A DNA stretch of 59,919 nucleotides from Actinomadura darangshiensis (GTDB lineage: Bacteria > Actinomycetota > Actinomycetes > Streptosporangiales > Streptosporangiaceae), in the NCBI RefSeq assembly GCF_004349235.1, contig NZ_SMKY01000019.1, positions 1 through 59,919 on the forward strand, written 5' to 3'. Below the pieces are notes generated by a model, which saw nothing but the letters and a program-made list of their open reading frames with translations, did no database searches and was not told where the DNA came from. A program made the position numbers and the translations under genes. Of this stretch, positions 21,946-29,900 are shown one piece after another (the first letter of the stretch is position 1; each line of letters begins with the position of its first letter).

Positions 21946-23490
21946 ATGAGTGCTCGTGGACCCGCCGTGGACCGGCTGCTCCCCCCGGCCGGGCTGCCCG
22001 CCCTGGAGGTGTCCGCCGAGCAGGCCGCGCGCGCCCGCGAGCTGGCCGCGCGGCTCGGGATGCTCCGCGAGCTGGACGTCGACCTCGCCGACCCCGTCAT
22101 CACCCGGGTGGAGCGGTTCGCGGCCGAGCGCGACCGTCCCGCCGTGACCGACGAGCACCGTTCGCTCACCTATGCGGAGCTGGCCGCGGAGGCCCGCCGG
22201 CTCGCCGCGCTGCTGCTGGCCGAGGGCGTCGAGCCCGGCACGGTCGTCGGCGTCGGCGGCGAGCGCTGCGCGTCCGTCGTCGCCGCGTTCCTCGCGATCG
22301 AGCTGGTCGGCGCCCTCTACGTCCCGGCCGACGGCACCTGGCCGGCCGGCCGCGTCCGCGACGTCCTCGACCAGGCCGGCGCGTCCATCCTGGTCACGGT
22401 CGGGAAGACCGCGCCCGCACTGCTCGAGGGCGCCGCGGAGGCCGGTTGCCGCGCGGTCCCGGCGGCCAGGGCGCAGGGCCGTGCGGCATGGCCGGGCGAG
22501 CCGCGCCTGACCGGCCTCGACCAGCCCCGGTACGTGCTGTTCACCTCGGGGTCGACGGGCCGCCCGAAGGGCGCGGTCGTCGAGCACCGGGGCATGCTCA
22601 ACCACCTCTGGGCGAAGATCGTCGACCTGGGGATGACCGGCGCGGACGTCCTCGCGTTCACCGCCCCGCTCGGCTTCGACATCTCCATCTGGCAGATGCT
22701 CTGCCCGCTGCTGCTCGGCGGCCGGGTGGACGTCATCGGCGACGAGACCGGCCACGACCCGGTCGCGTTCGCCCGCGCGGTCGACGACCAGGGCATCACG
22801 ATCGTCGAGCTGGTCCCGACCATGGTCAGGCACCTCCTGGACGACCTGGCCCCGGGCTCGCCGCAGGCTGGGGGGACGACCCCCGAGGCCCCCCGGAAGG
22901 GCTCGTTGGCGGGCCTGCGATGGATGGTCGCCACCGGCGAGGAACTGCCGGCCGAGCTGTCCCGCCGCTGGCTGGACGCCATGCCGCACGCCCGGCTCCT
23001 CAACGCCTACGGCCCGACCGAGTGCTCCGACGACGTCACCCACCACACCGTGACGGCCGCCGACCTGGGCCTTCTGCGCCTCCCCATCGGCACGCCGATC
23101 GTCAACGCGCGCTTGTACGTACTCCGTGAAGAGGAGGACGGCACATGGGCGGCGTGCGACGTGGACGGGACCGGCGAGCTGTTCGTCGGCGGCGTGGTCG
23201 TCGGGCGCGGCTATCTCGGCGACGACGAGCGGACCAGGGAGGCGTTCTTCCGCGACCCGTTCGGCGCGTCCCCGACCGGCCGCCTGTACCGGACGGGCGA
23301 CGCCGTCCGGCTGCTGCCGCCGGGTGCGGGGGGCGAGGACCGCCCCACCCTCCAGTACCTGGGACGCGTCGACCGGCAGGTCAAGATCGCCGGGGTGCGG
23401 ATGGAGCTGGGCGAGATCGAGGCGGTGCTGCAGCGGCACCCCGGGGTCGGGGCCGCCGCGGTCGTGGTGCACGAGTACCCGCCCAGGTAG
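21946..23490 (+). CDS. Discrete NRPS adenylation core lacking motifs A9-A10 (putative Dap activator, split A domain)
   Basis: 514 residues. About 50 residues precede the domain; then A1 LTYAELAAEA, A3 LFTSGSTGRPKG, A4 GFDISIWQ (Asp245), A5 NAYGPTE, A6 GELFVGGVVVGRGYL, A7 YRTGD and A8 GRVDRQVKIAGVRMELGEIE are all intact. The protein then stops 27 residues on (VVVHEYPPR), so A9 and the A10 lysine are absent. None of the frames in the next 460 bases contains them. Aligning by hand to GrsA gives D-I-W-E-V-T-A-D-D, rich in acidic residues as expected for a diamino acid such as Dap or Dab. The missing part is present in NRPS1 module 2. The start ATG at 21946 has GGAGGG at ideal spacing. A GC-rich palindromic repeat is inserted in frame. 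It could alternatively be a decayed gene, but no lesion is seen. Confidence 0.9.
   Translation: MSARGPAVDRLLPPAGLPALEVSAEQAARARELAARLGMLRELDVDLADPVITRVERFAAERDRPAVTDEHRSLTYAELAAEARRLAALLLAEGVEPGTVVGVGGERCASVVAAFLAIELVGALYVPADGTWPAGRVRDVLDQAGASILVTVGKTAPALLEGAAEAGCRAVPAARAQGRAAWPGEPRLTGLDQPRYVLFTSGSTGRPKGAVVEHRGMLNHLWAKIVDLGMTGADVLAFTAPLGFDISIWQMLCPLLLGGRVDVIGDETGHDPVAFARAVDDQGITIVELVPTMVRHLLDDLAPGSPQAGGTTPEAPRKGSLAGLRWMVATGEELPAELSRRWLDAMPHARLLNAYGPTECSDDVTHHTVTAADLGLLRLPIGTPIVNARLYVLREEEDGTWAACDVDGTGELFVGGVVVGRGYLGDDERTREAFFRDPFGASPTGRLYRTGDAVRLLPPGAGGEDRPTLQYLGRVDRQVKIAGVRMELGEIEAVLQRHPGVGAAAVVVHEYPPR
22866..22896 (+). repeat. GC-rich palindromic repeat, copy 1 (in frame inside the adenylation core)
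   Basis: A CTGGGGGGACGACCCCC hairpin followed by a second C-tract (GAGGCCCCCCGG). It encodes roughly AGGTTPEAPR between the A4 and A5 regions without breaking the frame. It matches copy 3 in the same orientation and copy 2 in the opposite orientation. Confidence 0.65.
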
Positions 23491-26900: not shown

Positions 26901-29900
26901 AGATCCTCTGCGGGATCTTCGCCGGCGTCCTCGGGCTGGAGCGGGTCGGCATCGACGACGGGTTCTTCGACCACGGCGGCGACTCGCTGAAGGCGACCCG
27001 CGCCGTCGCCCGCGCCCGCGCGGCGCTGAACGTGGAACTGCCGGTCAGGGCGCTGTTCGAGACCCCGAGCGTCGCGGGCCTCGCCGAGTACATCGCGTCC
27101 GCGGGGGAGGCGGGGCGTCCCGCCCTGGAGGCGGTGGAACGCCCCGTCCCGCTGCCGGTGTCGTACGCGCAGGAGCGGCTCTGGTTCCTGAACCGGCTCG
27201 AAGGGCTCACCGCCACCTACAACCTGCCGATCCCGCTGCGGCTCACCGGTGCGGTCGACCACGAGGCGATGCGGGACGCGCTCCGCGACGTCGTCGCCCG
27301 GCACGAGTCGCTGCGGACGCTGTTCGGCGACGCCGACGGCGAGCCGCACCAAGTGATCCTGGCGCCGGACGAGGCCGCCCCGCGGCTCACCGTCACCGAG
27401 CCCGACGACGTGCACGGCGCCCTGTTCATGGACGCCACGCGCGGTTTCGACCTGGCGAACGAGCTGCCGGTGCGCGCCCACCTGTACCGGCTGGACGAGA
27501 ACGAGCACCTGCTCCTCATCGTCCTGCACCACATCGCCGGGGACGGCTGGTCGATGGCGCCGCTCGCCCGCGACGTGATCACCGCCTACCTCGCCCGGCT
27601 CGACGGAGACGCCCCCGCGTGGGCGCCGCTCGGCGTCCAGTACGCCGACTACGCGCTCTGGCAGCGCGACCTGCTCGGCAGCGAGAGCGACCCGGGCAGC
27701 CTCGCCGCCCGCCAGATCGCCTACTGGAAGGACGCCCTCGCCGGGCTGCCCGACCAGATCCGGCTGCCGCACGACCGCCCGCGGCCGGACCGCGCCTCCT
27801 ACCGGGGCGGGCAGGTCGCCTTCGACGTCCCGGCGGAACTGGCGGACGGCCTCCGGACGCTCGCCCGCGACCACCAGGTCAGCGTCTTCATGGTGTTCCA
27901 GGCCGCGCTCGCCGCCCTCCTCACCCGGCTCGGGGCTGGGACGGACGTGCCGATCGGCTCGCCCATCGCCGGGCGCACCGACGCCGCCCTGGACGATCTC
28001 GTCGGCGTCTTCGTCAACACGCTGGTGCTGCGGACCGACACCTCCGGCGACCCGTCGTTCGCGGAGCTGCTGGCCCGGGTCCGGGAGACCGACCTCGCCG
28101 CGTACGCGCACCAGGACGTCCCGTTCGAGCGGCTCGTCGAGGTGCTGAACCCGGTCCGGTCGCTGGCCAGGCACCCGCTGTTCCAGGTCATGCTGACCTT
28201 GCAGAACAACCCGGAGGCGTCCGTCGAGCTGCCCGGCCTGGACGTCGCCGTCGAGCCGGTGGACGCCGGGGTCGCCAAGTTCGACCTGGAGTTCCTGCTG
28301 GCGGACGCCCGCGACGGCGCGGGCGGGTTCGCGGGGACGCTCGAATACGCGCTCGACCTGTTCGACCGGGACACCGCCGGGCGGCTCGCCGGCTGGTTCC
28401 GGCGGACCCTGGAGGCCGCCGTCGCGTCCGGCGGAGCCGTCACGGCCTTGGACCTCGAACTTCCCGGCGCCCCGGAGATCGCGGAAGCGCCGACCGAGAA
28501 GCGGCTCGTCGCGTACGTCGTCGCCGCGCCCGGCCAGACGCTCGACCCGGAGGAGCTGCGCGCCCACATCCGGGAGAGCCTGCCCGAGTCGATGGTGCCC
28601 GCCGCGGTCGTCGTCCTGGACGAGATGCCGCTCACCCCGAACGGCAAGGTCGACGCCAAGGCGCTCCCGAAGCCGGAGCTGACCATCCTCCCGGCGACCG
28701 CGTTCCGCGCCCCGTCCGGGGAGGCGGAGGAGGCCGTCGCCGCCGTCTTCGCCGACCTGCTCGGCGTGCACGGGGTCGGCGCCGACGACGACTTCTTCGC
28801 GCTCGGCGGCAACTCGCTCGTCGCGATGCGGGTCGTCAGCCGCGTCCGCCGCGCACTGGACGTCGAACTGCCCGTCCGCGCCCTGTTCGAGGCGCCGACC
28901 GTCGCGAGCCTCGCCGCGCTGCTGGAGGGCGGTGCCTCGCCGGGCCGTCCCGCGCTGGAGCCGCGCGAGCGCCCCGAGGTGATCCCGCCGTCGTACGCGC
29001 AGCAGCGGCTCTGGTTCCTCGGCCGGTTCGAGGGGCCCTCCGCCACCTACAACATGCCGGCCGCGCTGCGCATCCGCGGCCCCCTGGACGTGGCCGCGGT
29101 CCGCGCCGCCGTCGGCGACCTCGTCGCACGACACGAGTCGCTCCGCACGATCCTGCCGGACGCGGGGGGAGTGCCCCGCCAGCTCATCCTGGACCCGGCC
29201 GCCGCCCGTCCCGAGCTGGAGGTCACCGAGACGACCGAGGCGGAGCTGCCGTCGCGGCTCGCCATGGCCGCCGGGTACACCTTCGACATCTCGGCCGAGC
29301 CGCCGCTCCGCGCCCACCTGTTCCGGGTCGGGCCGCACGAGCATGTGGCGCTGCTGCTCATGCACCACATCGGCGGCGACGGCTGGTCGATGGCGCCGCT
29401 GTCGCGCGACTTCATCACCGCTTACGCCGCCCGTGCCGGGGGCGGTGAGCCCGAGTGGGCGCCGCTTCCCGTCCAGTACGCCGACTACACGCTCTGGCAG
29501 CAGGACCTCTTCGGCTCCGAGGACGACCCGGACAGCCTGATCTCGGCGCAGATCGCGTACTGGCGGGACGCTCTGGCCGGACTGCCGGAGGAGCTCGCGC
29601 TGCCGGCCGACCGGCCGCGCCCGGCCGCGGCGTCCTACCGGGGCGGGACGGCCCGGTTCCGGCTCGGCGCCGACGTCCGCGCGGGCGTCGTGAAGGTGGC
29701 CCAGGAGACCGGTGCCAGCCCGTTCATGGTCGCGCAGGCCGCGTTCGCCGCCCTCCTCACCCGGCTCGGCGCCGGGACGGACGTGCCGATCGGCTCGCCC
29801 ATCGCCGGGCGCACCGACGAGGCCCTCGACGACCTGGTCGGCATGTTCGTCAACATGCTCGTCTTCCGGACCGACACGTCCGGCGACCCCTCGTTCCGCG

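What the first reader, a model, noticed from the sequence alone, without database searches (positions are those of the whole stretch)
21946..28681. Trans-split adenylation domain: A1-A8 on a discrete protein, A9-A10 embedded in NRPS1 module 2
Seen: the discrete gene 21946-23490 has intact motifs A1 to A8 and then stops at VVVHEYPPR, without A9 or the A10 lysine; no frame of the next 460 bases encodes them. NRPS1 module 2 has no A1-A8 at all, but between its C domain and PCP it carries EKRLVAYVV, LPESMVPAAV and PLTPNGKVDAK, i.e. A9 and A10 with the lysine. The two fragments are complementary with only a loop missing. Known: the small subdomain rotates to present the A10 lysine and then the carrier arm, and auxiliary domains in interrupted A domains are inserted between A8 and A9, so that loop tolerates breakage. 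Inference: the A domain is reconstituted in trans, with the lysine-bearing part fixed in cis to the carrier, giving built-in carrier specificity. I do not recall a described NRPS with this division, but I could not search.
Basis: partly seen in the sequence, partly recalled or inferred. Interest (0 to 1): 0.95.

Follow-up and report, generated by a model that had tools for sequence, protein, structure and literature searches.

The report
Split amino-acid-loading enzyme with address tag
In soil actinomycetes a peptide-making enzyme domain is encoded in two complementary pieces, most of it on a separate small protein and the last piece, with its key lysine, inside the big assembly line beside the carrier, and the two pieces likely join to load one amino acid (predicted to be diaminopropionate) at just that place.

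Summary
The discrete protein (21946-23490) stops 22 residues after core motif A8; NRPS1 module 2 is C-[A9/A10]-PCP without A1-A8. This is no error or lone scar: all 120 listed family members (the window's own included) end 19-34 residues after A8 without A10; in 65 of 77 locus rows with enough downstream DNA a receiving module lies in the same locus, and in 9 of the remaining 10 genomes one was found elsewhere. The A9/A10 piece has constant length, low pN/pS, the lysine in 55 of 55 sequences and its own A10 variant (GKVD[T/V/A], not GKLDR). Truncated A proteins group together, and so do split modules, apart from intact modules of the same loci. Diaminopropionate genes flank the A gene in most loci. 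Best explanation: the A domain is rebuilt in trans, the A9/A10 piece serving as catalytic half and address label for PCP2; this was not tested biochemically. A split A domain at this loop, active in vitro when both proteins are mixed, is published (corallorazine Crz1/Crz2, 2024), so the principle is known. A mobile A core addressing an internal module, with two receiving modules for one A gene in two Streptomyces genomes, is a new variant.

The parts
21946..23490 (+). Discrete truncated adenylation protein (A0), A1-A8, 514 aa; likely 2,3-diaminopropionate-specific
   Evidence: AMP-binding only; all 120 listed family members, its own record included, end 19-34 aa after A8 without A10
21946..22110 (+). 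N-terminal extension of A0 (residues 1-55); read here as an equivalent of the C-A linker that could dock on the C domain (inference)
   Evidence: conserved positions in the family; pLDDT 92-97 for residues 11-60 of the model
23362..23487 (+). A8 motif and the 22-residue tail: first part of the small A subdomain, left without its partner strands
   Evidence: motif scan; model residues 471-514 have block means of pLDDT 40-53
23948..33481 (+). NRPS1: C-A-PCP, C-[A9/A10]-PCP, C-A-PCP and a last Condensation-family domain read as E
   Evidence: that the last one is an epimerisation domain is inferred from its place
27134..28435 (+). C domain of NRPS1 module 2
   Evidence: scan with models built from the window
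28436..28495 (+). variable spacer between C domain and A9/A10 piece
   Evidence: spacer region (with the last 20 residues of the C match) 29-64 aa long and pN/pS 0.92 in 42 loci
28496..28678 (+). A9/A10 piece of the small A subdomain (EKRLVAYVV ... LTPNGKVDAKALP)
   Evidence: AMP-binding_C positions 23-76 only; the piece as cut for one search is 56 aa in 42 of 42 loci
28646..28648 (+). codon of the A10 lysine (NRPS1 residue 1567)
   Evidence: lysine in 55 of 55 distinct split sequences
28685..28918 (+). carrier domain PCP2 (FALGGNSL)
20745..21710 (-). PLP-dependent SbnA-like enzyme; likely diaminopropionate synthesis
   Evidence: Pfam PALP; homologue in 54 of 58 truncated-A0 loci of the named scan; the name SbnA is recalled
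19693..20718 (-). SbnB-like (ornithine cyclodeaminase family) enzyme; likely diaminopropionate synthesis
   Evidence: Pfam OCD_Mu_crystall; homologue in 52 of 58 loci; the name SbnB is recalled
33478..41154 (+). NRPS2: C-A-PCP, C-A-PCP and a last Condensation-family domain read as E
41151..45107 (+). NRPS3: C-A-PCP-thioesterase
45108..45332 (+). MbtH-like protein, likely cofactor of the A core
   Evidence: Pfam MbtH
46654..47409 (+). discrete thioesterase
   Evidence: Pfam Thioesterase

Best explanation
The two gene pieces are complementary parts of one adenylation domain that likely assembles in trans: the discrete protein (A1-A8) is predicted to bind the A9/A10 segment built into NRPS1 module 2, and the rebuilt domain would then activate 2,3-diaminopropionate and load it on the adjacent carrier PCP2. 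Shown by sequence: the break lies in the A8-A9 loop, the A10 lysine exists only on the NRPS1 side, both pieces are conserved and recur together. Inferred: the tail of the discrete protein pairs with the NRPS1 strands to complete the small subdomain; the lysine then closes the active site for adenylation, and the same subdomain turns so that PCP2 reaches the site for thioester formation. Because the lysine half is tethered to one carrier, the discrete A core would be productive only there: the A9/A10 piece serves as an address label. Inferred too: the MbtH protein assists, and the two genes upstream make the substrate.
For: Complementarity at the A8-A9 loop, and the only inside-starting AMP-binding_C match of 78 in the genome, with no free small A subdomain found. 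All 120 listed family members (own record included; 726 passed the cut-off) end 19-34 aa after A8 without A10. Of 89 uncut truncated-A rows (some genomes appear twice), 77 had at least 8 kb downstream and 65 of these hold a C-[A9/A10]-PCP module, or one with a further A remnant, in the locus; the other 12 rows are 10 genomes, in 9 of which such a module was found elsewhere. In 60 genus genomes, none of the 11 without a truncated A protein matched the module query at 1e-166. The A9/A10 piece is 56 aa in 42 of 42 loci, mean identity 0.815, median pN/pS 0.38, against 0.92 for the spacer and 0.58 for the same segment of the preceding intact module (35 loci). Lysine in 55 of 55; the third residue after it is not R in 54 of 55 split but R in 161 of 203 intact sequences. 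Trees: 16 of 16 truncated A rows form one group (94/94); 16 of 17 split and 4 of 5 remnant modules form one group with none of 36 intact modules (91/84). Both supports lie just under the tool's own 95/80 mark. Models: A0 core mostly confident, tail not; the A9/A10-PCP piece confident and aligning to EntF 904-1045, while A0 aligns to EntF about 442-887. Published precedent: Crz1.2 alone showed no turnover, with Crz2 (which carries A9/A10) it was almost quantitative (PMC11342130).
Against: No biochemistry and no model of the complex. Low confidence of the A0 tail is expected for any cut domain, and the alignment held only 39 rows. Actinomadura litoris also has two modules with a remnant of A6-A7 and no A9/A10 before the PCP, which this mechanism does not explain. 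No partner module was found for the Pseudonocardiales MAG (L081), which may be incomplete. Distance correlation of A0 with the A9/A10 piece (0.79) is not specific: the next module's A core gives 0.92 on 21 loci, and that A core is also more constrained (pN/pS 0.28). Fungal SidD-type synthetases keep a truncated A in a module that is loaded by A1 (PMC10192304 passage), so a kept A remnant alone does not prove function.
Confidence: 0.85

Rival explanations
1. The A9/A10 piece is a deletion scar; the discrete A1-A8 protein adenylates and loads PCP2 by itself.
For: A-less or A-remnant modules loaded in trans or from a neighbour are known: CmnI by CmnA-A1 and SidD module 2 by A1. A. litoris has two modules without A9/A10.
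Against: The loading A domains there are not described as truncated in the text read; here the loading protein lacks A9/A10 in all 120 listed members. The piece is more constrained than the spacer and than the preceding intact module's segment, with constant length and invariant lysine. Crz1.2 without A9/A10 showed no turnover.
Confidence: 0.08
2. Another complete A domain loads PCP2, and the discrete protein acts elsewhere or not at all.
For: The genome holds many A domains and relatives (100 AMP-binding matches).
Against: Co-occurrence and mostly adjacency of the truncated A gene with the split module, linked diaminopropionate-type genes and constraint on the A gene (pN/pS 0.375).
Confidence: 0.06
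3. Sequencing or assembly error, or a decaying gene pair.
For: The window's genome is a draft of 658 contigs.
Against: The same two break points are seen in Actinomadura, Actinocorallia and Thermomonospora records, and the truncated A protein in Streptomyces and Nonomuraea too, several in chromosome-size contigs.
Confidence: 0.01

Closest known systems
Corallorazine synthetase Crz1/Crz2 split A domain (PMC11342130; outline with abstract, sections 6, 7 and 9 and passages read)
   Same: A domain broken right after A8; A9/A10 lie on the protein that carries the T domain; both proteins needed for adenylation in vitro.
   Different: There the break separates two adjacent genes within one module in collinear order (C-A-nMT / A9-A10-T-TD), with a methyltransferase at the break and glycine as substrate. 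Here the A core is a discrete protein, the A9/A10 piece is internal to a trimodular synthetase, no auxiliary domain is present, and some genomes have two receiving modules.
Friulimicin/laspartomycin/malacidin trans A-T-Te proteins acting on the CT module of CAT-CT-CATE synthetases (PMC9113097, passages read)
   Same: Same trimodular order with the second module lacking its A domain and supplied in trans.
   Different: The trans protein is described as A-T-Te; here it has no T, no Te and no complete A. Whether those CT modules keep A9/A10 was not tested.
Capreomycin CmnI loaded by CmnA-A1 (PMC12400406, first of three parts read)
   Same: Diaminopropionate loaded in trans on a module without A domain, with an MbtH partner.
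   Different: CmnA-A1 is the A domain of another module and also acts on its own carrier; no A9/A10 piece on CmnI is mentioned in the part read.
Fungal SidD/Nps6 module 2 with truncated A (PMC10192304, passages read)
   Same: A module that keeps only a C-terminal part of an A domain.
   Different: Lacks about 290 N-terminal residues and is called inactive; in SidD its T domain is loaded by the A1 domain.
WS9326A stand-alone trans A domains (PMC7539972, passages with the abstract read)
   Same: Discrete MbtH-dependent A proteins serving an assembly line in trans.
   Different: Adenylate their substrates in vitro as separate proteins.

Membership tests
NRPS adenylation domain (A core) | A core fold and motifs up to A8 | tested here: met
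   AMP-binding match, residues 59-424; A5, A7, A8; model matching A domains in the PDB
NRPS adenylation domain (complete) | A9, A10 and the A10 lysine in the same chain | tested here: not met
   absent from the chain and from 23401-24000 in all frames
Split A domain of the Crz1/Crz2 kind | break between A8 and A9 | tested here: met
   alignment with ten intact A domains
Split A domain of the Crz1/Crz2 kind | A9/A10 piece on the chain that carries the PCP | tested here: met
Split A domain of the Crz1/Crz2 kind | collinear break within one module on adjacent genes | tested here: not met
   discrete A gene; piece internal to NRPS1 after C1-A1-PCP1-C2; not next to each other in the Streptomyces and Nonomuraea loci read
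Split A domain of the Crz1/Crz2 kind | activity only when both proteins are present | not testable with these tools
   needs purified proteins
Trans-acting stand-alone A protein | discrete gene, no PCP, beside a module without its own A core | tested here: met
Trans-acting stand-alone A protein | adenylates on its own | not testable with these tools
   predicted not to, as the A10 lysine is missing
Friulimicin-type trans A-T-Te | T and Te domains on the trans protein | tested here: not met
   only AMP-binding in the discrete protein
2,3-diaminopropionate-activating A domain | substrate pocket and linked biosynthesis genes | tested here: inconclusive
   PALP and OCD-family genes adjacent; pocket segment closest to PvdL A3, then to the sulfazecin A3 whose crystal holds diaminopropionate; that PvdL A3 takes diaminobutyrate is recalled

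The most novel reading that the evidence does not exclude
A natural plug-in system: one roaming, incomplete A core is switched on only where a carrier bears the matching half of the small subdomain, so that a segment of about 56 residues acts as a portable loading label, and in some genomes one A core addresses two separate modules.
Probability: 0.5. Interest if true: 0.85.

Novelty: new variant of a known kind. Interest (0 to 1): 0.74.

Why it matters
If true, catalysis and carrier specificity of an A domain are physically separated: most of the enzyme is mobile, the lysine half is the address. That would explain how a discrete A protein avoids mis-loading other carriers, give a natural test of the domain-alternation model, and offer a short natural tag (about 56 residues) by which a module could be opened to loading in trans. 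The natural versions, from remnant-bearing to clean C-[A9/A10]-PCP modules, are a ready comparative series.

Tried and rejected
Tried: (1) stand-alone A9/A10 protein elsewhere in the genome: none among 78 AMP-binding_C matches lies in an open frame under 272 aa. (2) Origin of the A9/A10 piece from a neighbouring module or from intact relatives of the discrete A protein: its nearest relatives are other split modules (mean best score 120 against 77 and 59 bits; tree). (3) Mirror-tree test: not specific enough to use. (4) Naming the product: madurastatin and GE23077 were considered from the Actinomadura literature. The rene cluster is described as lacking the A domain in its last module, unlike here; GE23077 was left open, no cluster for it being seen in the listings and passages looked at. 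Product unknown. (5) Phylum survey: 1 of 396 genomes matched, the window's own, but only the three best candidates per genome were scored, so it is a weak lower bound; family survey 17 of 200, seven candidates scored per genome. (6) Literature on split or truncated A domains: brought up one split, functional A domain (PMC11342130) and none with this arrangement. Only the open library was searched, most results were seen as listings, and one search listed 25 of 517 papers.

Rejected: sequencing error (recurrence); simple decay (constraint); a break between large and small subdomain (the break is inside the small one).
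Full report
What is there. The window (73% G+C) holds an NRPS cluster: a discrete A gene (A0, 21946-23490), NRPS1 (23948-33481), NRPS2 (33478-41154), NRPS3 with thioesterase (41151-45107), MbtH (45108-45332), a discrete thioesterase (46654-47409) and, divergently upstream, a PALP-family (SbnA-like) and an OCD-family (SbnB-like) gene (the Sbn names are recalled). 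A0 has the AMP-binding domain and A8; it ends 22 residues after A8. NRPS1 reads C-A-PCP, C-[A9/A10]-PCP, C-A-PCP and a last Condensation-family domain read as E. No frame of the gap after A0 encodes A9/A10.

Where the break lies. Added as separate fragments to an alignment of ten intact A domains, A0 ends inside the A8-A9 loop and the NRPS1 piece resumes at KRLVAYVV; the C-domain end of that fragment is force-aligned over A8 and means nothing. The first part of the small subdomain therefore sits on A0 and the rest on NRPS1. Pfam AMP-binding_C shows the same: of 78 matches in the genome only NRPS1 module 2 starts at profile position 23, the others at 1-4. Intact relatives of A0 (L096, L105, L107) have a longer A8-A9 loop than the window's intact NRPS modules, which may have made the break tolerable (inference).

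Is it conserved? A protein search listed the best 120 of 726 proteins at E <= 1e-60 (7,993 candidates scored), the window's own included; all 120 have A8, end 19-34 residues later and lack A10. In 60 Actinomadura-genus genomes (the window's own included) 51 matched A0 at 1e-100; two of these (G036, G054) are intact A relatives. A scan of named genomes returned 80 loci. Over the loci scanned for architecture, 89 uncut rows carry a truncated A0 (some genomes are counted twice, under an unnamed handle and an accession); 77 have 8 kb or more downstream, and 65 of those show a C-[A9/A10]-PCP module, or one with a further A remnant, in the same locus. Of the 12 rows with less than 8 kb, 4 show it; the others mostly end before the second module, and one (L168) has broken frames. 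The 12 rows with room but without the module are 10 genomes (four Streptomyces, three Nonomuraea, A. litoris, Actinomadura OS1-43, one Pseudonocardiales MAG) in which A0 is not next to such a synthetase; the partner module was found elsewhere in 9 of the 10, not in the MAG.

Co-occurrence. With the C2-[A9/A10]-PCP2 stretch as query, 47 of the same 60 genomes matched at 1e-166. The 13 without a match include all 11 without a truncated A0, one whose contig ends 2.3 kb after A0 (G014) and one with broken frames (G037). Some of the 47 matched only through the C domain; for those that were looked at, the split module was seen by the architecture scan instead. The A. litoris matches are the modules without A9/A10.

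Selection and signature. In 42 loci the A9/A10 piece is 56 aa long without exception, mean pairwise identity 0.815, median pN/pS 0.377. The spacer region before it has 0.924 and varies in length; the same segment of the preceding intact module has 0.581 (35 loci) and of the following one 0.485 (21 loci); A0 has 0.375, the C domain 0.423, PCP2 0.516, and the next module's A core 0.281. Among 55 distinct split sequences the lysine is kept in 55, the next residue is V in 53, and the third residue after the lysine is T, V or A in 54; among 203 intact sequences that third residue is R in 161 and the next residue L in 148. The one split sequence with R is L158, an A. litoris module that also groups with intact modules.

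History. Truncated A0 proteins (16 of 16 rows) form one side of a branch with support 94/94 against 13 intact relatives, some on long branches. For the A9/A10-plus-PCP stretch, 16 of 17 split and 4 of 5 remnant modules group together (91/84) without any of the 36 intact modules taken from the same loci (at most two intact modules per locus were used). Both supports fall just short of the tool's 95/80 mark. The two exceptions are an A. litoris module and the second locus of A. nitritigenes (L098), where a remnant module groups with its own synthetase: likely separate origins. Remnant modules in Nonomuraea, A. litoris and A. nitritigenes keep parts of A6-A7 before A9/A10, as if A1-A8 were worn away while A9/A10 was kept (inference).

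Several receivers. S. hygroscopicus ATCC 21589 and Streptomyces IBSBF 2953 each hold two different C-[A9/A10]-PCP modules (79% and 66% identical to each other, so not assembly copies) and one truncated A gene; Actinomadura OS1-43 holds two (61%) besides the one next to its first A gene, and two A genes in all. One A core serving two modules is therefore likely but not shown.

Substrate. PALP-type (SbnA-like) genes were found in 54 and OCD-type (SbnB-like) in 52 of the 58 truncated-A0 loci of the named scan; of the four loci with neither, two have A0 at a contig start and one is the A. nitritigenes second locus. The pocket segment is closest to PvdL A3 and then to the sulfazecin A3, the latter crystallised with diaminopropionate (titles). 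Read against the classical pocket positions (mapping recalled), A0 gives D-I-W-E-V-T-A-D-D, with the tenth residue, the lysine, supplied by NRPS1. That PvdL A3 takes diaminobutyrate is recalled. Diaminopropionate is the best guess.

Comparison with print. Searches (open library; most results seen as listings) brought up one split functional A domain: corallorazine Crz1/Crz2, where Crz1.2 alone gave no turnover and Crz1.2 plus Crz2 did (sections 6, 7 and 9 of PMC11342130 read). That shows that such a break can work. The differences are given under Closest known systems. The friulimicin group shares the trimodular order with a second module supplied in trans, but by A-T-Te proteins (passages of PMC9113097).

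Judgement. The sequence facts are firm, reconstitution in trans is the best explanation (0.85), and the address-label reading is attractive but untested. New variant of a known kind.

Noticed in passing
L157, L158 (Actinomadura litoris): Two C-PCP modules keep an A6-A7 remnant but have no A9/A10 before the PCP, beside other modules that do keep A9/A10; how their carriers are loaded is unexplained.
   Followed up: partly
L039 / L098 (A. nitritigenes, second locus): A second, diverged truncated A protein (508 aa frame) next to a synthetase with a C-[A6-A7 remnant]-A9/A10-PCP module that groups with its own synthetase's modules: likely an independent origin of the same split.
   Followed up: partly
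L159 (Pseudonocardiales MAG, contig 367): A module with an A core and A9/A10 but with the A8 hinge segment missing (FVGRAHPIVAPVAVIARQD), and another with an insert that looks like a methyltransferase (motif recalled) between A8 and A9.
   Followed up: no
L096, L105, L107: Intact relatives of the discrete A protein have an A8-A9 loop about 15 residues longer than the window's intact NRPS modules.
   Followed up: partly
window 51220-52173 and 53045-54109, +: A second ornithine-cyclodeaminase-family gene and a gene with a 2,4-diaminopentanoate-dehydrogenase domain downstream of the cluster; role in the pathway unknown.
   Followed up: no
split modules in general, window 28643-28657: The A10 motif reads GKVD followed by T, V or A in split modules instead of GKLDR; a possible sequence marker for finding further split A domains.
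   Followed up: yes
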